A DNA stretch of 64,000 nt, taken from the NCBI RefSeq assembly GCF_004210295.1, contig NZ_SDAK01000001.1, positions 1,550,001 to 1,614,000 of the forward strand, given 5' to 3'. Positions 1,349 to 62,001 of the stretch are shown in pieces. The stretch comes from Lactococcus sp. S-13. Lineage in GTDB: Bacteria; Bacillota; Bacilli; Lactobacillales; Streptococcaceae. A program made the position numbers and the translations under genes. The first letter of the stretch is position 1; the number at the start of each line of letters is the position of its first letter. The notes under the pieces were generated by a model. That model did no database searches and had not been told where the DNA came from. It saw only the letters and a list, made by a program, of their open reading frames with translations.

Positions 1349-1411
1349 ACAAAAAACCACCCCTCAAACTCGTGCAAAACAAGACCAGCTCACCAACGAA
1401 TAGAGCAAAAG

Positions 1412-1436
1412 AAAAAACCGCCTAGGCGGTTTTTTT
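1412..1436. terminator. Intrinsic terminator after rpsR
   Basis: AAAAAACCGCC and its exact complement around a 2-base centre, followed by a T run on both strands. It closes the leftward rpsF-ssb-rpsR operon. Confidence 0.85.
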
Positions 1437-1490
1437 ATATTCGCTTATGAACCCTACCGTAAGCGCCGAAGCACTAACGACTAGTGGTTT

Positions 1491-1736
1491 TTAGTTTTGG
1501 TCTTCAGCTACGAATGGAAGCAAAGCCATTACGCGCGCGCGTTTGATTGCGTTAACCACTTTACGTTGGTTTTTAGCAGATGTACCAGTCACGCGACGTG
1601 GCAAGATTTTACCACGTTCTGAGATGAAACGTTTCAAAAGTTCAGTGTCTTTGTAGTCAACGACTTCGATTTTGTTTGCAGCGATGAAGTCAACTTTTTT
1701 ACGGCGTTTGAAGCCGCCACGACGTTGTTGTGCCAT
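1491..1736 (-). CDS. rpsR: 30S ribosomal protein S18
   Basis: An 81-residue basic protein beginning [14 protein letters not shown]. It contains the S18 signature segment ([20 protein letters not shown], near residues 35-54) and the [12 protein letters not shown] helix. S18 binds S6 and the 16S rRNA platform in the small subunit. A longer reading frame exists upstream, but the start at 1736 is chosen because AAGGAG sits directly ahead of it and the N-terminus then matches the family. It is the last gene of rpsF-ssb-rpsR, 178 bases after ssb, and is followed by a strong terminator. Confidence 0.97.
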
Positions 1737-1914
1737 TTTATTTCTCCTTATATTATTTTTTAGATGTCCTATCAATTAAAGTTTTCTAGGATACGACGCT
1801 TTGTCGAAAAGCCAATTTTGCTTTTCTTAAAAAGCGAGTAAGACGTTAGGCAAAAGTTCCAAAGAATTTTGCCATCTTGTAATTAGGCGCTTTAGGGTCA
1901 ATTACAAGTACGTA

Positions 1915-2412
1915 TTAGAATGGAAGATCATCATCCGAAATTTCCATTGGTGAGCTGCCAAATGGGTCAGCATCACGCCCAAAATTATTCGGTGCTGCGT
2001 TAGTGTTCGCCTGCGGACGTGAATTGTTTGCAGATTGACTTGGTGCAGAATATGAACCAGTCGCTGCTCCACCACTCATACCGTCACGAGCAGACCGACT
2101 TTCCAACATTTGGAAACTCTCAGCCACAACCTCAGTCACATAAACACGTTGACCTTGTTGATTTTCATAGTTCCGCGTTTGAATACGCCCAGTAATTCCT
2201 ACCAACGCTCCTTTTTTAGCCCAATTTGCCAAATTTTCAGCTTGTTGGCGCCAAATCACACAGTTAATGAAATCAGCCTCACGCTCACCGTTCGCATTTT
2301 TAAATTGACGGTTAACCGCCAAAGAAAACGTAGCGACAGCTTGATTTTGAGGGGTATAACGAAGTTCAGGATCGCGAGTAATGCGTCCCACTAACACAAC
2401 ATTGTTTATCAT
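1915..2412 (-). CDS. ssb: Single-stranded DNA-binding protein
   Basis: A 165-residue SSB. The OB-fold domain covers about residues 1-105 ([20 protein letters not shown] at the start, later the block [20 protein letters not shown]). A flexible Ser/Asn/Gln-rich linker follows, and the protein ends in the acidic tip DDDLPF used to recruit repair and replication partners. The start has AGGAGAAG eight bases upstream. It sits between rpsF and rpsR, the standard Firmicutes order, and is cotranscribed with them. Confidence 0.97.
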
Positions 2413-2434
2413 AATGAACTTCTCCTAAAAGCTA

Positions 2435-2728
2435 TTAAGCTTCAACTTTAACGATCATGTGACGAAGAATGTCAAGATTGATCTTAGCAAGACGGTCAAA
2501 TTCGCTCAAAGCTTCTGAAGTTGTTTCAGCTTCAAAAGTAGCGATGTGGTACAAACCTTCGCGGAAATCGTTGATTTCGTAAGCGAGTTTACGTTTTTCC
2601 CAGTCTTTAGACTCAAGATTTACAGCACCGTTGTCAGTCAAGATTGCATCGAAACGTTCAACGAGGGCAGCTTTTGCTTCTTCTTCAATGTTTGGACGAA
2701 TAATGTAAAGAATTTCGTATTTTGTCAT
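2435..2728 (-). CDS. rpsF: 30S ribosomal protein S6
   Basis: A 97-residue protein starting [13 protein letters not shown]. It carries the S6 features: the [14 protein letters not shown] helix, [20 protein letters not shown] in the middle, and the terminal [11 protein letters not shown] strand. S6 pairs with S18 on the 16S platform. An in-frame extension upstream is not used, because an excellent AAAGGAGGAAAAATCAATG context marks 2728 as the start. It is first in the rpsF-ssb-rpsR operon, 22 bases before ssb. A GC-rich hairpin lies directly upstream in its leader. Confidence 0.97.
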
Positions 2729-2749
2729 TGATTTTTCCTCCTTTTGGAC

Positions 2750-2800
2750 TAATGACGCAGGTCGAGCCCTGCGTAAGTTGTGAGTTTTTCCCACAGAGTT
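2750..2800 (-). promoter_or_regulatory. rpsF leader hairpins, possible S6:S18 autoregulatory leader
   Basis: The leader of rpsF contains a stable stem (ACGCAGG/CCTGCGT, 2755-2774 with a 6-base loop) and a second weaker stem just upstream (TGTGGG/CTCACA). Many bacteria have an rpsF leader that binds the S6:S18 complex and represses the operon. The position and stem fit that idea, but I did not recognise the full consensus, so this is a tentative call. Confidence 0.35.
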
Positions 2801-2830
2801 ATATTCTATCACTTTTTTTCATTTTTAGCA

Positions 2831-2870
2831 AGAGAATTTACTGACGAAAATTTCCGTCAGCATTTTCTCT
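2831..2870. repeat. Inverted pair of the 16-bp repeat
   Basis: AGAGAATTTACTGACG at 2831-2846 and CGTCAGCATTTTCTCT at 2855-2870, both exact, with an 8-base loop. The near-palindrome lies between the rpsF promoter region and the end of uppP. Confidence 0.9.
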
Positions 2871-2876
2871 GTAATG

Positions 2877-2910
2877 AAAAAAGTACCAAACTTTTCGTCA
2901 GTACTTTTTC
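2877..2910. terminator. Probable terminator after uppP
   Basis: AAAAAAGTAC pairs with GTACTTTTT across a 14-base loop and gives T runs on both strands. It follows the uppP stop on the minus strand by about 12 bases. Confidence 0.55.
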
Positions 2911-2921
2911 TTATCTCACGC

Positions 2922-3773
2922 TTAGAAAATCGCTTTGATTGCCGCATAGACGAGCAAAAGCGCGCCCAGAACAATCCGATATTTCCCAAAGAAAGTAAAA
3001 TCATGTTTTTTGACATAATCCATCAACCAGCGAATAGCCAGCATGGACACGAGAAAGGCCACCACAAAAGCGACAAGCAAAATCCCAAACTGACCAAAAT
3101 TCAAACCATTCCCATCTTTAAAGAAATGAACCAGCTTGATGAAACTCGCTCCAAACATAATCGGAATTCCAAGGAAGAAAGTAAACTCAGCCGCAACAGC
3201 CCGACTTACCCCAATCAAAAGCGCCCCAACAATCGTCGCTCCAGACCGTGACGTCCCAGGAATCAGCGACAAGACTTGGAAAAGTCCAATATACAGCGCC
3301 ATTTTATAAGGCAAGCGATCAATATTCGTAATTGAAAGTTCGTGATTTGGCACCCATTTGCGTTCGATGACAATGAAAGCCACCCCATAAATAATCAACA
3401 TTACCGCTACCGGTACAAACTGTTGAAAATGTGCCTCCAACCAATTATTCAAAGGCAAACCAATGATTGCCGCAGGCAAACAAGCAATCAAAACCTTGAC
3501 CCACAAGCGCCAAGTTAACTGAATTTCTCGTGGTGTTTTTTGTTTATTGGCTGGATTTAACTTATTAAAAGGATTCAATTTGTGGAAATACAGCACCACC
3601 ACAGACAAAATCGCCCCCAGCTGAATCACCACATTGAACATATCCTTGAAAGCTTGCGATTGATTGAGCTTGATAAATTCTTCAGCGATAATCAAATGCC
3701 CCGTTGACGAAATCGGCAGCCACTCTGTAATTCCTTCAATGATACCTAAAATAATTGCACGAATAAAATCCAT
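2922..3773 (-). CDS. uppP: Undecaprenyl-diphosphatase (BacA/UppP)
   Basis: A 283-residue polytopic membrane protein that dephosphorylates undecaprenyl pyrophosphate, recycling the lipid carrier of cell-wall synthesis and giving bacitracin tolerance. The two family signatures are present: [14 protein letters not shown] (near residues 14-27) and [10 protein letters not shown] (near 172-181), along with about eight hydrophobic helices. The start is preceded by CGAGGAG. The length is normal for the BacA family. It is a single gene between the rpsF leader and the lysine riboswitch. Confidence 0.97.
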
Positions 3774-55120: not shown

Positions 55121-55453
55121 ATGACTGAAATAAGTCCACAATTGCTCAAAGGACCCCTTGACGGTGCTCTTTTGCTTGTCATTTCGCAGAGTGAAACCTA
55201 CGGTTATGAAATTACTGAAAAGTTAGAGCAGTTAGGTTTTCTCTCCATTGCCGCAGGAACGATTTATCCGATTTTACAAAAATTAGAACGTGAAAAAATG
55301 ATCCAAGGTGAGATGCGAAAATCACAAGAAGGCCCCAAACGTAAATATTTTACCATCACAACCGCCGGTCAAAATCGACTCAAAACCTTTTTAGCGGACT
55401 GGCAAGCATTGACGCAAGCTATGCAAAATCTCATCAAGGAGGTTTCCAAATGA
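55121..55453 (+). CDS. PadR-family transcriptional regulator
   Basis: A 110-residue winged-helix regulator: LLKGPLDGALLLVISQSETYGYEI at the start, then AAGTIYPILQKLEREKMI and the wing KRKYFTITTAG. It lacks the long C-terminal helix region of PadR-s1 and is a PadR-s2 type. Its stop overlaps the next membrane-protein gene by four bases (ATGA), which marks an operon; such small PadR proteins usually repress their own operon. Confidence 0.9.
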   Translation: MTEISPQLLKGPLDGALLLVISQSETYGYEITEKLEQLGFLSIAAGTIYPILQKLEREKMIQGEMRKSQEGPKRKYFTITTAGQNRLKTFLADWQALTQAMQNLIKEVSK

Positions 55454-56004
55454 AAGTTTATCGTGAATTGAAAAATGGAATCAGAGAACACCAAGAAAAC
55501 AAATCTATTTTTTCCCAACTCAATAAAGATAACCAGAAATACTTGACCGATTTTATCCGATTTTCAACACAAAAAGCAGATGAATTGTGTAAAGACGACC
55601 GTGAGCTCACTATCTATTCCGATATTATTGAAGCGCAAAAAAATAATTTGAACGCCGAAAAATTCTTTGGGATAAGTGCCAAAGAATTAGCTGAACAAAT
55701 GGTTAAAGAATTACCTAATAAAAACATCTGGAAAACAATAATTATCTCTGGACTTCTGAATTTCATTGCCTTTAGCTTAATAAGCTTGCTCCTTTTCAGA
55801 AGCAACCTCAAATCAAGCGATTATTGGAGCTTTGTCCTTTTTGTTATCTTAGGAACATTTGTAAACAGCTTTCTTCGGATTTGGATTAGCCGATTATTGA
55901 TTGAAAAATCGCAAAAAGTAAGGAGAAATACTACTTTTGCGATTCAGATTCTAGTCGTCCTCCTCCTTATCGGTGGACTTTATCTTTTAATTGGTAAAAA
56001 ATAA
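55450..56004 (+). CDS. DUF1129-like membrane protein
   Basis: A 184-residue protein. The cytoplasmic N-terminal part (LNKDNQKYLTDFIRFSTQKA, then NLNAEKFFGISAKELAEQMV) fits the DUF1129 pattern of a helical domain ahead of membrane helices. Three to four helices fill residues 98-182. It starts within the PadR stop and has CAAGGAGG upstream. Function unknown; probably an envelope-stress target of the PadR. Confidence 0.75.
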   Translation: MKVYRELKNGIREHQENKSIFSQLNKDNQKYLTDFIRFSTQKADELCKDDRELTIYSDIIEAQKNNLNAEKFFGISAKELAEQMVKELPNKNIWKTIIISGLLNFIAFSLISLLLFRSNLKSSDYWSFVLFVILGTFVNSFLRIWISRLLIEKSQKVRRNTTFAIQILVVLLLIGGLYLLIGKK

Positions 56005-56585: not shown

Positions 56586-56741
56586 ATGAAAACTTCAGAT
56601 TTAATCAAAGAAAACAATGCTTTACGGGAACAACTTTCTTTGGATATACATCATTCATTTTTAAGGCAGTATCTGACAAAACTTTCTGATATAATGAGTT
56701 CAGTATTAAATGAAAGAGGAATTTTCAATGGGAATTTTTAG
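56586..56741 (+). CDS. Small protein (51 aa) at the end of the PadR operon
   Basis: A 51-residue frame (MKTSDLIKENNALREQLSLD at the start) with AAAGGAG seven bases ahead and an 11-base gap from the preceding gene. It is predicted to form one or two helices. It overlaps the next start by 14 bases, and its central codons also contain a TGATATAAT box, which looks like the promoter of the next gene. Confidence 0.55.
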   Translation: MKTSDLIKENNALREQLSLDIHHSFLRQYLTKLSDIMSSVLNERGIFNGNF

Positions 56742-57054
56742 TCCAAGCGCAGCCAATTTCAATGTTGGCGAAACTGCACTACTCGAGCAACTCATCAACT
56801 TAATTTTAAATCCTGAAACAACCAAAGATGAGCGTGCAGCCTTGACAACTGCCAAAAAAGCACTGGAGCAAAAAACCAGTGTGGCAAAAGTAGTCAATGA
56901 TTTATTGAACGAGCTTATGCTTGCTGCTGTCGGCTTAAAAATGTCTCCCGAAATGAAGAGTTTTTACAGCAAGCTCTACAATAACCGCTCAGCGCTCAAA
57001 GCGCTAGAAACTGGCGCTGCTGGCTCTACACTTTTGTTTTCTCTCTTTGGATAA
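56728..57054 (+). CDS. Bacteriocin immunity-like protein (EntA_Immun type)
   Basis: A 108-residue helical protein. The pattern LLEQLINLILNPETTKDERA, followed by a helix ending SVAKVVNDLLNELM and then SPEMKSFYSKLYNN, resembles the four-helix enterocin A/pediocin immunity family. These proteins protect cells from class IIa bacteriocins by acting at the mannose PTS. No bacteriocin structural gene is next to it, so it would be an orphan immunity gene. The ribosome site is GAGGAA; an internal TATAAT at 56691 may drive it alone. Confidence 0.65.
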   Translation: MGIFSPSAANFNVGETALLEQLINLILNPETTKDERAALTTAKKALEQKTSVAKVVNDLLNELMLAAVGLKMSPEMKSFYSKLYNNRSALKALETGAAGSTLLFSLFG

Positions 57055-57127: not shown

Positions 57128-57763
57128 TCATTCACCGTAAACATCAGCATCACTCAGTTTGAAAATCACTAAAGTTTCTGGTGGATAAGCCGAAAGTTGA
57201 TTGGCAAAAGTGTCGTCATCATCTTTTTTGACTTTTGCTTTGAGTGTAATGGTCACTTTTTGATGTTCTTCGACCAGTTGGTCGTAAATTGAACGCAAAT
57301 CAGCAATATCTTGACTGCTTGCTTTGGGCAAAACAGTGTATTTGGCGTAATCTTCATCAAACCAAGAACCTTCTTTTTCAAAATCAACTGACGAATTTTC
57401 CCGAATTTGCAGTTTCGCTGAAATGTCATAATCAAAGCCTTGTTGCTCAATGAGTTTGGCAATTTTGACCATGGCCTCATAATTTCCAGCAGCCTTAAGT
57501 TTAAGGGTTGCTTTATAAGGAATCCCCGCCAACTCAAAACGTCCAGCAATCGCAAAAGGATCAGCCTCTGCACCCTTGTCATCAAGGGCAGGGGGCGCAA
57601 AATTGACCCCAATCGAATATCCGCGTGTGAGCAGTTGTTCGTACTGGCTCACCACCTCTTCGAGTTCAAGTCCGTCAATAAATTCATTAAATGTGCGCTC
57701 AGTCAGCTTGTTATTTTCAGCAGCTTCTTCTTTAGGATAAATAATTTTTACTTGATAAGTCAT
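57128..57763 (-). CDS. Hypothetical protein (211 aa)
   Basis: A 211-residue soluble, acidic protein beginning MTYQVKIIYPKEEAAENNKL. It has an alternating strand/helix pattern in the middle (FELAGIPYKATLKLKAAGNY and later KVTITLKAKVKKDDDD). No domain is recognised; no signal peptide. The ATG at 57763 follows a TGTTATAAT box by six bases, so the message should be leaderless. The upstream region is the left copy of the 83-bp repeat that flanks the RiPP-like cluster. Confidence 0.7.
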   Translation of the reverse strand: MTYQVKIIYPKEEAAENNKLTERTFNEFIDGLELEEVVSQYEQLLTRGYSIGVNFAPPALDDKGAEADPFAIAGRFELAGIPYKATLKLKAAGNYEAMVKIAKLIEQQGFDYDISAKLQIRENSSVDFEKEGSWFDEDYAKYTVLPKASSQDIADLRSIYDQLVEEHQKVTITLKAKVKKDDDDTFANQLSAYPPETLVIFKLSDADVYGE

Positions 57764-57778
57764 AGAGCTATTATAACA
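57764..57778 (-). promoter_or_regulatory. Extended -10 promoter, probable leaderless mRNA
   Basis: On the minus strand TGTTATAAT, then AGCTCT, then ATG. No ribosome site can fit in between. Confidence 0.6.
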
Positions 57779-57861
57779 CATTTGACAAAGCGACGATACT
57801 TCGTTTATGTCCTGCCTTTGGTACAGTAATTCCTCTTGTCAGAAAAAAATCAACACTTAAT
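57779..57861. repeat. 83-bp direct repeat, left copy
   Basis: Matches 60493-60575 at 79 of 83 positions; the first 48 bases are identical. The two copies bracket the MFS, ThiF-like and peptide genes. This copy adjoins the -10 box of the 57.1-kb gene. Confidence 0.95.
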
Positions 57862-57890: not shown

Positions 57891-59087
57891 TCATTTATTT
57901 TTAATAGCGTGTTGTTCTCGATTTAGCGGCGAACAGTAGCCGATTATTCCCGCAAAAACTCGTAGCAAGCCTGCAATTAAAATAATCACAAAAAGCGAAA
58001 TATTTTTTTCAACTAAAAAGCCTCCTAAAAATGCTCCGATTGGAATACTAACATATGAAATAGTTCGTGTCACACTAACAACTCGTCCTAATAAATTTTT
58101 TTCCACTACCCTTTGACGTAAGGTAAAATAAGCGACAACATTCAAATTACCAAAAACTCCAGTCAGAGCCAGAAAAGTAGCAATAATAGTAAAGTTTGTT
58201 GTGAAATAAATGCCAATCGTTGCCAACCCTGCAAGTAAAGTGGCATTTGCAATAATTTTTCCAGCAGAAATGCGCGAAATAACTCTTGGTGCAATCAGCA
58301 CACCCACTAATGCTCCTAACCCTATACTACTTATAATTAAACCATAGGTAGCTGAGCTTCCATGAAGGGTGTGTAAAACAAAAAAAGCAAGATTCGCTTG
58401 ATAAAGATTAATTGCAAAATTTGTAATCAAGAAGAGGAGAGAACCTGTCCAAACCACTTTATTTTTTCGAGCAGCTGAAAATCCTGTTGAAATATCTTTC
58501 CAAATTGAGTTTGATTTTTTAGTAATAACTGATTGATCTGGAATTCTGAGTGCCAGTAAACCTGCCAACAAAAAACTAAGTGCGTTAAACCATAAAAGGT
58601 AGATAGGCGACACAATCAAGATTAAAGTTCCTGCAATCATAGGCCCAACTAAACTTAGTGTATTATCAACACCTTCAATCCATGAATTAACCTGGGAGAG
58701 TTTCTTTTCCTCGACAACTTGAGGAATTAAACTATTAAATGCGGGGTGCGTTAAAGGTTCAACGGATGAGAGTAGAAAAGATGCCATATAAACAAGAATC
58801 ATATGGATTTGAGATTGGCTAAGTTCAAAAATAAGAAAAAATGAAAAAAAGAGTGAAGCAAAGTATCCCCAATAAATAATTTTTGTTTTTCTCATTTTAT
58901 CTGCAAGAACCCCACCATAAATTGTGAAAATAATCCAAGGAATAAAAGTTACACCATACAATGTCGCCATTTGATAGGCGGAGCCTGTTTTATTAAAAAT
59001 GATTACAGGGACTGCGATTTGCTGTAACCAATTACCAATTGCTGAAATCCCAAAAGCAGAAAGCAAAAAATAATAGGCTTTATCCAT
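57891..59087 (-). CDS. MFS exporter of the RiPP-like cluster
   Basis: A 398-residue major-facilitator protein with 12 helices. It belongs to the MFS_3/enterobactin-exporter-like group: AYYFLLSAFGISAIGNWLQQ at the start, then SLIPQVVEEKKLSQVNSWIE near residue 120. In microcin C-type loci an MFS pump (MccC) exports the product and protects the producer, and the same job is inferred here. The start at 59087 has GGAGG five bases ahead and overlaps the end of the ThiF-like gene by 8 bases, so they are translationally coupled. The DNA is more AT-rich than the neighbours. Confidence 0.85.
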   Translation of the reverse strand: MDKAYYFLLSAFGISAIGNWLQQIAVPVIIFNKTGSAYQMATLYGVTFIPWIIFTIYGGVLADKMRKTKIIYWGYFASLFFSFFLIFELSQSQIHMILVYMASFLLSSVEPLTHPAFNSLIPQVVEEKKLSQVNSWIEGVDNTLSLVGPMIAGTLILIVSPIYLLWFNALSFLLAGLLALRIPDQSVITKKSNSIWKDISTGFSAARKNKVVWTGSLLFLITNFAINLYQANLAFFVLHTLHGSSATYGLIISSIGLGALVGVLIAPRVISRISAGKIIANATLLAGLATIGIYFTTNFTIIATFLALTGVFGNLNVVAYFTLRQRVVEKNLLGRVVSVTRTISYVSIPIGAFLGGFLVEKNISLFVIILIAGLLRVFAGIIGYCSPLNREQHAIKNK

Positions 59088-60189
59088 GTCCACCTCCACA
59101 CACCTTACAGTTTTTATCCAGTCCCCAAGTCTCAGCTATACTTGTTTCCATCGTATTGAAGTTAATCGATTTTAATTTTCCAAGTGCTGTTAATTCTCCA
59201 ATTCCAGTGATATACTTAACTAATTCCACACATAAAAATCCTGTAATTGTGGATACAAGTGGTACCAAGGCGGTATTATCTCCAGTTAAATCAAGGCGTC
59301 GTCTTTCTTCTAAAATAGCGTAAGAAACAGGATTTTCATCTTTCACACTATTTTTCCAACATTCAATACAACCTGTTTGATGAGGAATAATTGTATAGTG
59401 CATTGCCCTTTGCGCCTCAAGTCCCGCACAAAATAGAGGAACATTTAGCTTTAGAATCGCTTCATTTACCCACCCTGCCAGTAACATTTTAGGGCGATCT
59501 GCGACTAAAATAAGAGCATCAAATCCTTTAAATTCTTCTTCAATATCCCTAGCGCTTCCAATTTTTTTCTCTGTAACTTCAAAATTGACCTCAGGATTAA
59601 ATGCCGCAATCCTTTTTTGTGCCAATTTTGCTTTACTCTTACCGATATCTTCAAAATTATAAAGAATTTGTCGATTAAGATTAGAAATATCAACCTTATC
59701 AAATTCTACAGCCTTTATTGTTCCAAATCCAAGCCCCGCTAGGTCATAAACAATATGAGAACCCAGCCCTCCGAGACCTATAATTCCAATTTTAGCGTTG
59801 CATATTTTCTTTTGGGCTAAAAATTTATTATCTGATAGTGTTGAAAATGAAGAGAAGAAATTAATATTTCTATGATATCTTTCTAATTCATAAGGAGTTA
59901 AAATATCTGAACCAATTAAGTTCACATCTTCTATAAAACCATCTTTACTTATGCTATCAATGGCTTCTCTGACATCTTTTTTAGAATATTGAGGAAAATC
60001 TAATGAGATTTGCTTTGCAATTTCCTCTACCGTTAACCTCCCATCAAGCAACTTTATCAGACGACTAATTGCTCCATCACTATCATCATATTTTGTGATT
60101 TCTCCAAATCCACCAACATAGACCTTTTTCTTCATAAACACAACAGGATACGCTTTTTTCATTTTAGGCTTCACTTTATTTATATCCAT
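59080..60189 (-). CDS. ThiF/E1-like adenylating enzyme (MccB/PaaA-like) of a RiPP-like cluster
   Basis: A 369-residue protein. Residues about 1-100 form a PqqD/RRE-like winged helix (GGFGEITKYDDSD, LIKLLDGRLTVEEIAKQ, then SKDGFIED) that usually grips a precursor peptide. The E1 domain has the nucleotide loop GIIGLGGLGSHIVYDL (near 136), NLNRQ with the conserved Arg (near 173), and two CXXC pairs for zinc (Cys274/277 and Cys361/364). Such enzymes adenylate a peptide terminus (MccB, microcin C) or a Glu side chain (PaaA, pantocin A). The start at 60189 has GAAGGA; an upstream ATG lies inside the terminator hairpin and is rejected. Confidence 0.88.
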   Translation of the reverse strand: MDINKVKPKMKKAYPVVFMKKKVYVGGFGEITKYDDSDGAISRLIKLLDGRLTVEEIAKQISLDFPQYSKKDVREAIDSISKDGFIEDVNLIGSDILTPYELERYHRNINFFSSFSTLSDNKFLAQKKICNAKIGIIGLGGLGSHIVYDLAGLGFGTIKAVEFDKVDISNLNRQILYNFEDIGKSKAKLAQKRIAAFNPEVNFEVTEKKIGSARDIEEEFKGFDALILVADRPKMLLAGWVNEAILKLNVPLFCAGLEAQRAMHYTIIPHQTGCIECWKNSVKDENPVSYAILEERRRLDLTGDNTALVPLVSTITGFLCVELVKYITGIGELTALGKLKSINFNTMETSIAETWGLDKNCKVCGGGHG

Positions 60190-60213
60190 AAATTTTCCTT
60201 CACTTTCAAAGAA

Positions 60214-60234
60214 AAAGTCTGCAAAGCAGACTTT
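60214..60234 (-). terminator. Hairpin between peptide gene and ThiF-like gene
   Basis: AAAGTCTGC and its exact complement with a 3-base loop, followed on the minus strand by TTTTTCTTT. It lies in the 85-base gap after the 18-codon gene. A partial terminator here would make far more peptide message than enzyme message, as described for mccA-mccB. Confidence 0.75.
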
Positions 60235-60274
60235 CATTAAATTGTCCTAGAGTGATGTTAATATCGCTCGAACC

Positions 60275-60331
60275 TTAACCTTCAAGTACTAAACCGGCAA
60301 CACTTGATTTCATGGTTTCTTTTTTAAGCAT
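60275..60331 (-). CDS. Candidate RiPP precursor peptide (18 aa)
   Basis: An 18-codon gene encoding MLKKETMKSSVAGLVLEG. It has a strong ribosome site (GAGGTGG, 6 bases before ATG) and lies behind a good promoter, with a terminator-like hairpin after it and the ThiF-like gene next. The basic N-terminus would be the leader and the C-terminal LVLEG the modified part. MccA peptides end in Asn; here the end is Glu-Gly. A C-terminal Gly suits classical E1 adenylation and an internal Glu suits PaaA-type chemistry. The product is unknown. Confidence 0.75.
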   Translation of the reverse strand: MLKKETMKSSVAGLVLEG

Positions 60332-60359
60332 AATGCCACCTCTTTCTTTGATAGATAGA

Positions 60360-60387
60360 GTAATGAAAGACCATGGATATTCATTAC
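60360..60387. promoter_or_regulatory. Dyad at the start of the cluster transcript
   Basis: GTAATGAA-N12-TTCATTAC, perfect arms, placed at about +1 to +28 of the predicted transcript. It could be an operator or an RNA stem; no regulator gene is in the cluster. Confidence 0.55.
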
Positions 60388-60394
60388 AAGAGTC

Positions 60395-60423
60395 ATTATA
60401 CTGCTATAATTCTGAAAAAACAA
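60395..60423 (-). promoter_or_regulatory. Promoter of the RiPP-like cluster
   Basis: TTGTTT and TATAAT with a 17-base spacer on the minus strand, in strongly AT-rich DNA. Confidence 0.75.
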
Positions 60424-60492: not shown

Positions 60493-60575
60493 CATTTGAC
60501 AAAGCGACGATACTTCGTTTATGTCCTGCCTTTGGTACAGCAATTTCTCTTATCAGAAAAAAATCAGCACTTAAT
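60493..60575. repeat. 83-bp direct repeat, right copy
   Basis: Counterpart of 57779-57861 (79/83 identical). It lies upstream of the mnmE promoter. Before the cluster was gained, one copy presumably formed the intergenic region between mnmE and the 57.1-kb gene. Confidence 0.95.
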
Positions 60576-60615: not shown

Positions 60616-60634
60616 TGCGTTAAAATAGTCTTTA
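60616..60634 (+). promoter_or_regulatory. mnmE promoter, probable leaderless mRNA
   Basis: GCGTTAAAAT ends at 60626, seven bases before the ATG at 60634, and the gap AGTCTTT has no ribosome site. Confidence 0.5.
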
Positions 60635-62001
60635 TGAGTTTAACACAAGAATTTGATACAATCGCGGCGATTTCAACGCCGCTTGGCGAAGGAGCTATTG
60701 CTATCGTTCGCCTGTCTGGAACGGATGCGCTAAAAATTGCGCAAAGCGTTTTTAAAGGAAAAGATTTGGCAAAAGTTGCCAGTCATACCATCAATTATGG
60801 CCACATTTTTGAAGCAGAACGCTTGGTTGACGAGGTCATGGTTTCGGTCATGCGCGCACCCAAAACGTTTACACGCGAAGATATTGTCGAGATTAACACC
60901 CACGGTGGGATTGCTGTGACGCAAGAAATCTTGCAACTTTTGTTGCGCTCTGGCGCACGTCTGGCCGAACCTGGTGAATTTACTAAACGGGCCTTTTTGA
61001 ATGGCCGTATTGACTTGGCCCAAGCCGAATCTGTCATGGATTTAATCCGGGCAAAAACAGACAAAGCCGCACACATTGCCGTCAAACAGCTTGATGGCTC
61101 CTTGTCCCACATGATTAACAACATCCGTCAAGAAATCCTTGAGAGCTTAGCCCAAGTTGAGGTCAATATTGACTATCCCGAATACGATGACGTGGAAACA
61201 ATGACTTCACAGATGTTGTTAGAGAAAACAAGCCATTTTGAGCAACTTTTAGAAACTTTGCTCGCCACTGCCAAAAGAGGAAAAATTCTCCGTGAAGGCT
61301 TGAAAACAGCCATTATCGGACGACCAAACGTCGGAAAATCCAGTCTTTTAAACCAACTTTTACGAGAAGAAAAAGCGATTGTCACAGATATTGCGGGTAC
61401 TACGCGCGACACCATCACTGAATTTGCCAATATCGGTGGCGTCCCTCTGGAATTGATTGATACAGCCGGTATTCGCGAAACTGATGATTTGGTTGAATCT
61501 ATCGGTGTGGAGCGTTCCAAAAAAGCACTGGCTGAGGCTGATTTAGTCCTTCTCGTCCTCGATGCCTCTAACGGCTTGACAGCAAAAGATATGGAGCTTT
61601 TAGAACTCTCCAAAAATTCCAACCGCATCATCTTGCTCAATAAAACAGACCTCCCTGAACAACTTGATGTCACTCAACTTTCGAGCGATTTCATTCGGAT
61701 TTCAGCCCTGAAAAATGAAAATCTGGAAGCCGTTGAGCAAAAAATCAATAGTATCTTCTTTGCCGGCGAGATTGAAGCCAAAGATGCGACCGTCCTCTCC
61801 AACGCTCGCCATATCGGCCTCGTTGAACAAGCACTGGAGGCGCTCAAAGAAGCCAACAATGCGTTGGCATTAGGATTGCCTGTCGACTTAGTCCAAGTAG
61901 ACATCACGCGCTGTTGGCAACTTCTGGGCGAAATCACTGGTGAAGCCGCTCCTGATGAGCTCATTACCCAACTTTTTTCACAATTTTGTCTTGGAAAATA
62001 A
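60634..62001 (+). CDS. mnmE: tRNA modification GTPase MnmE
   Basis: A 455-residue GTPase that, with MnmG, installs the cmnm5 group on wobble uridine. An N-terminal folate-binding domain ([20 protein letters not shown]) precedes the helical domain with an inserted G domain: GRPNVGKSS (near residue 230), [16 protein letters not shown] and NKTD. It ends in the catalytic CLGK motif. The start matches the family; no ribosome site is present. A terminator follows. Confidence 0.97.

What the first reader, a model, noticed from the sequence alone, without database searches (positions are those of the whole stretch)
57891..60423. A compact RiPP-like locus: 18-aa peptide, E1-like enzyme, MFS exporter
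Directly seen: promoter, an 18-codon gene with a strong ribosome site, a hairpin, a ThiF-fold enzyme with an N-terminal RRE-like domain, and an overlapping MFS gene, all AT-rich and co-directional. This is the mccA-mccB-mccC layout of microcin C, but the peptide MLKKETMKSSVAGLVLEG is unlike MccA and there are no further tailoring genes. Inference: a cryptic, possibly undescribed peptide-nucleotide or cyclised peptide antibiotic.
Basis: partly seen in the sequence, partly recalled or inferred. Interest (0 to 1): 0.88.

Follow-up and report, generated by a model that had tools for sequence, protein, structure and literature searches.

The report
Glycine-tailed peptide with adenylating enzyme
A three-gene cassette makes a tiny 18-residue peptide ending in glycine, an enzyme built to activate such peptide ends, and a pump; related cassettes occur in distant bacteria, it is not microcin C, and the final molecule is unknown.

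Summary
On the minus strand lie an 18-codon gene (60275-60331, MLKKETMKSSVAGLVLEG), a hairpin, an RRE-ThiF enzyme (59080-60189) and an overlapping MFS gene (57891-59087). In 14 of 14 distinct loci with a related MFS gene directly downstream (12 distinct peptides) the peptide ends in glycine. Microcin C chemistry needs a terminal asparagine, so this is not microcin C; it also fails the pantocin, enterofaecin, Ind and GRC tests. In nine of these peptides, from four divergent lineages, a serine stands exactly nine residues from the end. Best reading: a ThiF-like RiPP pathway whose enzyme adenylates the terminal glycine; ring closure on that serine (nine-residue macrolactone) is the most specific inference, about 0.3. 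The cassette sits between 83-bp direct repeats and is absent from the same site in the two relatives whose flanks aligned. RRE-ThiF RiPPs are known; I found this glycine-ended, MFS-linked variant undescribed in the passages I could read, but the main survey was not readable.

The parts
60275..60331 (-). precursor peptide gene, MLKKETMKSSVAGLVLEG (18 aa); Ser10 is 9th from the C-terminus, Gly18 is the C-terminus
   Evidence: conserved in relatives, third-position bias
60336..60343 (-). ribosome binding site AGAGGTGG of the precursor gene
   Evidence: 20 nt before the ATG
60213..60235 (-). hairpin in the precursor-enzyme spacer, terminator/attenuator-like
   Evidence: hairpins predicted in the same spacer in 12 of 12 loci folded; not listed by the terminator scan
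59080..60189 (-). RRE-ThiF (E1-like) adenylating enzyme, 369 aa
59920..60189 (-). N-terminal RRE-like winged-helix part (residues 1-90)
   Evidence: pLDDT 84-92 for residues 31-80; alignment with PaaA
59104..59874 (-). ThiF domain (residues 106-362), with D164, R173, Q174, K186, D231 and two CxxC pairs invariant in the 10 aligned sequences
57891..59087 (-). MFS exporter (398 aa from ATG 59087; GTG 59099 possible)
57779..57861 (+). left copy of the 83-bp direct repeat that brackets the cassette
60493..60575 (+). right copy of the 83-bp direct repeat (95% identical)

Best explanation
A minimal RiPP operon. The first 8 or 9 residues of the 18-mer act as leader and dock on the enzyme's RRE (inferred). 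[quoted passage not shown] The activated carboxyl is then attacked inside the peptide; the most specific candidate is the hydroxyl of the serine nine residues from the end (Ser10), closing a nine-residue macrolactone SVAGLVLEG with loss of water (inference, about 0.3). Host peptidases trim the leader and the MFS protein exports the product (inferred). The spacer hairpin keeps precursor transcripts in excess over enzyme (inferred by analogy with mcc). The cassette arrived by horizontal transfer (supported by patchy distribution and absence at the same site in two relatives). Whether the product is an antibiotic or a signal is undecided.
For: Enzyme family: ThiF 1.2e-46; best PDB matches are MccB and PaaA by sequence and by fold (Foldseek: MccB 8.2e-18, PaaA 8.1e-15), both RiPP adenylating enzymes. 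E1 positions D164, R173, Q174, K186, D231 invariant in 10 of 10 aligned sequences. Precursor: in 14 of 14 distinct loci with a related MFS gene directly downstream (above 100 bits) a short upstream ORF ends in Gly (12 distinct peptides); in the 46-row tree set 0 of 21 rows with a named peptide but no such MFS end in Gly, a 22nd (L116) does, and 10 rows have no named peptide. Third-position bias in the peptide gene. Ser 9th from the end in 9 of 9 peptides of the wider window group and 9 of 13 overall; with 10 representatives, some column with at least 6 Ser arose in 0.24% of shuffles. No conserved cysteine other than the two CxxC pairs, which argues against a ThiF-like thioester relay. MFS co-inheritance: of the 9 top-ranked plasmid matches of the window's MFS, 7 lie directly downstream of one of these enzymes, 4 of the 7 being Salmonella plasmids with the same cassette. 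Precedent for ThiF-like ring closure: GrcB thiolactone, IndF indolylamide, EnfB imide (PMC12250964, sections read; PMC12150305, parts 1-2 of 3 read; the latter says that the enterofaecin structure still needs detailed NMR).
Against: No product or activity was tested. The Ser is missing at that place in four of 13 Gly-ended peptides (Macrococcus, G578, G535, G1315), so lactone formation cannot be the common reaction of all. The wider window group is weakly supported as one clade in the careful tree (71/22; its four-member core 100/100), and I chose that group after seeing the quick tree, so the serine statistics are lenient. The 100-bit MFS threshold was also set after looking. No protease gene in the cassette. 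An MFS gene alone does not predict Gly: three loci with a more distant MFS (19-22% identity) have peptides ending in Cys (L053; L120) and Arg (L129), and the Exiguobacterium locus L125 holds an MFS gene scoring 108 bits, divergent and not adjacent to the enzyme, with no peptide found by my script. For L059 I picked a TTG-start ORF among five candidates after reading the sequence.
Confidence: 0.65

Rival explanations
1. The enzyme adenylates the C-terminal Gly, but the nucleophile is something else: a backbone amide (imide, as reported for EnfB), a Lys amine, the N-terminus (head-to-tail), or an external amine giving a C-terminal amide or conjugate.
For: Four of 13 Gly-ended peptides lack the serine at that place; EnfB is reported to make imides and amides (PMC12250964); Lys or Arg lies near the N-terminus in most of the peptides.
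Against: Besides the start Met only Gly is invariant in the 13 aligned peptides, and no Lys column in the C-terminal half is conserved. The serine at fixed distance has no explanation here except recognition.
Confidence: 0.4
2. A microcin C-like peptide-nucleotide Trojan horse: the enzyme attaches a nucleotide to the peptide end, and the MFS pump exports it.
For: Same gene order and spacer hairpin as mccA-mccB-mccC; MccB is the best PDB match.
Against: No Asn at the C-terminus in 13 of 13 peptides, while MccB's N-P bond uses the Asn side chain (PMC6495379; that paper's rule that all precursors end in Asn is partly built in, since Asn was one of its search criteria). No MccD, MccE or MccF-like gene between the repeats. 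The MFS of the mcc locus L117 gives no tblastn match to the window's MFS at 1e-5. MccB lies on a long branch apart from the window group, its place unsure.
Confidence: 0.08
3. Pantocin-like chemistry on the glutamate side chain (Glu17), for example cyclisation onto the Gly amide.
For: PaaA also aligns along the N-terminal RRE; Glu is next to Gly in six of 13 peptides.
Against: The residue before Gly is Lys, Val or Pro in seven of 13; no 2OG-Fe oxygenase or DMT transporter as in the PaaA-like loci.
Confidence: 0.07
4. The enzyme is a housekeeping or orphan E1 for ThiS/MoaD-like proteins and the short ORF is incidental.
For: ThiF fold.
Against: No ThiS/MoaD match in the genome; no conserved catalytic Cys; RRE domain; the ORF is conserved at codon level and by position in distant phyla.
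Confidence: 0.02

Closest known systems
Microcin C (MccA/MccB/MccC)
   Same: Gene order short peptide, RRE-ThiF enzyme, MFS; hairpin/terminator between precursor and enzyme; 28% identity over 268 residues.
   Different: Peptide ends in Gly, not Asn; 18-20 aa in the closest relatives instead of mostly 7; no nucleotide tailoring or immunity genes; MFS not detectably related at 1e-5.
Pantocin A (PaaP/PaaA/PaaB/PaaC)
   Same: RRE-ThiF enzyme aligning from its N-terminus (26.5% over 230 to the PaaA-like L118).
   Different: No EEN core, no 2OG-Fe(II) oxygenase, no DMT/EamA exporter; modification expected at the C-terminus.
Enterofaecin (EnfA/EnfB, WWIII group)
   Same: RRE-ThiF acting on the C-terminal carboxyl of a peptide of about 20 residues (PMC12250964); WWI-type loci found in the same order.
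   Different: Precursor ends WIII/WIVI and the like; 28-32% identity for WWI-type enzymes; ABC transporters as described in the review; separate branch in the trees. EnfB itself was not compared.
Ind (IndA/IndF/IndP, NWYFI group)
   Same: ThiF-like macrocyclisation through the C-terminal carboxyl (PMC12150305).
   Different: Needs Trp and Ile (NWYFI), has an M16 protease; 23-26% identity for WYFI-type enzymes. IndF itself was not compared.
GBAP-type peptide lactones (Fsr, E. faecalis)
   Same: The proposed ring, Ser to C-terminus over nine residues, has the size of GBAP's Ser3-Met11 lactone (PMC7028047, passages read).
   Different: GBAP belongs to the FsrB (AgrB-like) membrane-protein system, not to an ATP-dependent E1; a product analogy only.

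Membership tests
RRE-ThiF (ThiF-like adenylyltransferase) RiPPs | ThiF-fold adenylating domain with ATP-site residues | tested here: met
   Pfam 1.2e-46; D164, R173, Q174, K186, D231 invariant in 10 of 10
RRE-ThiF (ThiF-like adenylyltransferase) RiPPs | N-terminal RRE (winged helix) | tested here: met
   Fold model with good local confidence and alignment to PaaA; the Pfam PqqD score alone is below cut-off
RRE-ThiF (ThiF-like adenylyltransferase) RiPPs | Adjacent conserved short precursor | tested here: met
RRE-ThiF (ThiF-like adenylyltransferase) RiPPs | ATP-dependent modification of the precursor | not testable with these tools
   needs the purified enzyme
Microcin C family | Precursor C-terminal Asn | tested here: not met
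   Gly in 13 of 13; requirement from PMC6495379
Microcin C family | Nucleotide-modifying or immunity genes (MccD, MccE, MccF) | tested here: not met
   Besides the three genes, the ORFs listed between the direct repeats are short frames inside or overlapping them or in the upstream region
Pantocin A | Glu-Glu-Asn core and 2OG-Fe(II) oxygenase | tested here: not met
   Peptide sequence and gene content; compare L118, L119
Enterofaecin / WWIII | C-terminal WWIII-type motif | tested here: not met
   Peptide ends VLEG; WWI-type enzymes form a separate group
Ind | NWYFI core and M16 protease | tested here: not met
GRC | 39-residue precursor ending in Cys, radical SAM enzymes | tested here: not met
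   the GrcB sequence itself was not compared

The most novel reading that the evidence does not exclude
The window belongs to an uncharacterised group of RiPP enzymes that, like ubiquitin-type E1s, activate a C-terminal glycine, but on peptides of 17-23 residues, and in the window's lineage use it to close a nine-residue Ser-to-Gly macrolactone: an ATP-driven, soluble route to agr/GBAP-like peptide lactones exported by a dedicated MFS pump, shared across Bacillota, Actinomycetota and Pseudomonadota.
Probability: 0.28. Interest if true: 0.7.

Novelty: new variant of a known kind. Interest (0 to 1): 0.5.

Why it matters
ThiF-like RiPP enzymes have given a different bond in each of the types reviewed (phosphoramidate, bicyclic core, thiolactone, imide, indolylamide; PMC12250964, PMC12150305). 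A group with an invariant C-terminal glycine and, here, only three genes and an 18-mer that can be synthesised can have its chemistry read in one in vitro assay. The conserved serine makes a definite prediction, a mass loss of 18 that Ser10Ala abolishes. If true it would be a new enzymatic route to peptide macrolactones and a possible new signal or antibiotic in lactic acid bacteria.

Tried and rejected
Rejected: microcin C membership (no C-terminal Asn), pantocin membership, ThiS/MoaD partner, phage carriage (phage tblastn: 8 records, none covering 80% of the query, some annotated ThiF or MoeB). Viral-contig scan with the enzyme alignment: 3 distant loci, 28-34% over parts of the query. Promoter scan: not above chance. 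The idea 'an MFS neighbour predicts a Gly end' had to be narrowed to the related MFS group lying directly downstream, after L053, L120, L125 and L129. The quick tree gave strong support for the wider window group (99*, SH-aLRT only); the careful tree did not (71/22). For the careful tree I dropped six of 46 rows because of long branches: L035, L047, L053, L077, L085 and L116, the last being Gly-ended. More plasmid searches found no further cassette among the rows listed (25, 25 and 15 of 131, 451 and 334 records), and family-wide genome searches gave none (no peptide could be named for some of their loci). The AlphaFold model of the whole enzyme is only moderate (mean pLDDT 67.9; six rows given), so I drew nothing on the active site from it. 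The ACS Omega 2024 survey of ThiF-like clusters in lactic acid bacteria (PMC11256085), which may show this group, is not held; I read only the review's account of it.
Full report
WHAT IS THERE. The cassette lies on the minus strand: precursor gene 60275-60331 (MLKKETMKSSVAGLVLEG), spacer of 85 nt with a hairpin, RRE-ThiF gene 60189-59080, MFS gene 59087-57891. It is bracketed by two 83-bp direct repeats (95% identical); no other good copy lies in the window (next best 26 nt at 85%), and a search with the right-hand copy plus the start of the next gene listed no further repeat match in the host genome or 29 relatives. That next gene (60634-62001) I take for mnmE by eye. In relatives G001 and G015 both flanks align and only about 160-260 bp lie between them, without the cassette; in G009 only the mnmE side aligned (gene order of G001). 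So the cassette is an insertion relative to those two relatives; how it was inserted is not shown. The host is in the same family as Streptococcus but another genus (G965 of that genus has the coordinates of L022, Streptococcus sp. SPS1); I could not name it.

THE SHORT GENE IS REAL. Relatives fetched by the enzyme sequence showed a peptide at the same place: Bacillus MVRKTVIKSSVAGLGLEG, Streptococcus MLKQKRVHSASIAGIAVEG (three genomes: L022, L023, L106), Leuconostoc MIKKTTTPSSVAGSALEG, Gemella MLKEKKVYSASIAGISLEG, an alphaproteobacterial MAG MAMNIFSFKASSSSLSDEG. Differences between close copies fall at codon positions 1, 2, 3 as 4, 4, 14 (window/Bacillus), 3, 5, 9 (window/Leuconostoc) and 6, 1, 9 (Streptococcus/Gemella). 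Peptides were picked by me from the listed small ORFs.

WHAT IS CONSERVED. All 13 peptides end in Gly. Of these, 12 stand in loci with a related MFS gene directly downstream (tblastn above 100 bits): 14 of 14 distinct loci, the window counted once and L104, L105 dropped as copies of L022, L023. Of the 46 tree rows, 11 are such loci, 3 are MccB or PaaA-like, 10 have no peptide I could name, 21 have a named peptide not ending in Gly, and L116 has a Gly end without an MFS in the stretch held. Loci with a weaker MFS match end in Cys (L053, L120) and Arg (L129); L125 has a 108-bit MFS that is not adjacent and no peptide found. Counting from the end, Ser is at position 9 in 9 of 9 peptides of the wider window group and 0 of 4 of the others. 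Shuffling residues within peptides, four divergent lineages gave Ser throughout that column in 0.04% and any invariant inner column in 1.5% of 200,000 draws; over 10 representatives of all groups, some column with at least 6 Ser came up in 0.24% and some column with 6 equal residues in 2.5% of 20,000 draws. The group was defined after seeing a tree, so these are lenient.

THE ENZYME. PDB searches put MccB (3.6e-27) and PaaA (1.8e-26) first, and Foldseek on a moderate model (mean pLDDT 67.9) agrees. E1 positions and two CxxC pairs are invariant in the 10 aligned sequences; no other cysteine is. The nine best-scoring relatives in the 46-row set are all from Gly-ended, MFS-linked loci. In the careful tree the window, Bacillus, Streptococcus and Leuconostoc enzymes form a clade at 100/100, the Macrococcus/G535/G578 enzymes another at 100/100; the wider window group of eight has 71/22, and MccB and the two PaaA-like rows sit apart on long branches (six long rows dropped). 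GrcB, EnfB and IndF themselves were not in the tree; rows with WWI- and WYFI-ended precursors stood in for the last two.

DISTRIBUTION. With the enzyme profile, 17 of 395 genomes of the order matched at 1e-40, 30 of 398 of the class at 1e-50, 13 of 284 of the genus of G099 at 1e-60, 3 of them at window-like scores, and 2 of 348 of the phylum at 1e-60, the window's included; most are other ThiF groups by their peptides. Window-like enzymes are thus rare and patchy. Three relatives are on plasmids (Macrococcus, Salmonella, Pantoea; the 11.9-Mb Nonomuraea record is listed as a plasmid but has a chromosome's size), and L024 lies on a 22.6-kb contig with a MobA/MobL relaxase and a ParA-like ATPase. 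This fits horizontal transfer.

REGULATION. The spacer between precursor and enzyme folds into a hairpin in 12 of 12 loci; 11 of 12 beat at least 192 of 200 shuffles, the Pantoea one 175 (for L060 only the hairpin-bearing part was folded). E. coli mcc has a terminator at that place (PMC6495379), so a precursor-rich transcript is a fair inference. One neighbour each of seven Gly-type loci was scanned: an Rgg in Leuconostoc, an RNPP-type in Macrococcus, an HTH-TPR protein in Bacillus, ArsR-like ones in Salmonella and Pantoea; the Streptococcus neighbour is an M13 peptidase and the Gemella one has no match above its cut-off. None lies within the window's cassette. Peptide-sensing regulators beside three loci leave a signalling role open.

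MECHANISM. Known ThiF-like RiPP enzymes adenylate a carboxyl and let a nucleophile attack it (PMC12150305, PMC12250964). The C-terminus here is always Gly, as in ThiS and (from general knowledge) ubiquitin-like proteins, so C-terminal adenylation is likely. For the next step I weigh a Ser10-Gly18 macrolactone (about 0.3), another intramolecular or external nucleophile (about 0.4), nucleotide attachment (under 0.1) and Glu chemistry (under 0.1). None was shown here.

NOVELTY. The kind is known. I saw no description of a Gly-ended, MFS-linked group in what I read: sections of PMC12250964 (3, 4 part 1, 9 part 1, 14, 17, 26), parts 1-2 of 3 of PMC12150305, passages of PMC6495379, PMC13361665 and PMC12445099; search listings. 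The survey most likely to show it (PMC11256085) was not held, so this is weak evidence of absence.

Noticed in passing
window 56710-57054 (+): A 114-aa ORF matches the Enterocin A immunity family (PF08951, 2.2e-10), just beyond the gene downstream of the cassette; a PadR regulator (6.2e-23) and a weakly DUF1129-like protein lie at 55121-56004. In relative G001 the gene at 57128-57781 directly follows the pseudouridine-synthase-like gene (named by eye), so this stretch is absent there.
   Followed up: partly
window 57779-57861 and 60493-60575: The 83-bp direct repeats around the cassette had no match listed in 29 relatives; their origin is unexplained.
   Followed up: partly
L121 (Priestia koreensis plasmid), upstream of the enzyme at 2992: Three copies of one 21-aa precursor, MKKIVVRKLATVTVPQLRPGT, about 105 bp apart, a different ThiF-RiPP group.
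   Followed up: no
L038, L112, L107 (genus of G099): Related enzymes with 16-aa peptides ending VEGR (MSIKKIATPATVVEGR, MKITKVIAAASTVEGR): the EG of the window's peptide followed by Arg; no related MFS in the stretch held.
   Followed up: no
L026 (Gemella) near 1135: The enzyme frame is broken into two ORFs while the peptide and the MFS gene are intact: sequencing error or pseudogene.
   Followed up: no
L116 (G1315) 1405-3165: A Gly-ended peptide (MRLRPTNAGSVFGSVPG) beside an enzyme whose frame runs on into a long 3' extension; no MFS match in the stretch.
   Followed up: partly
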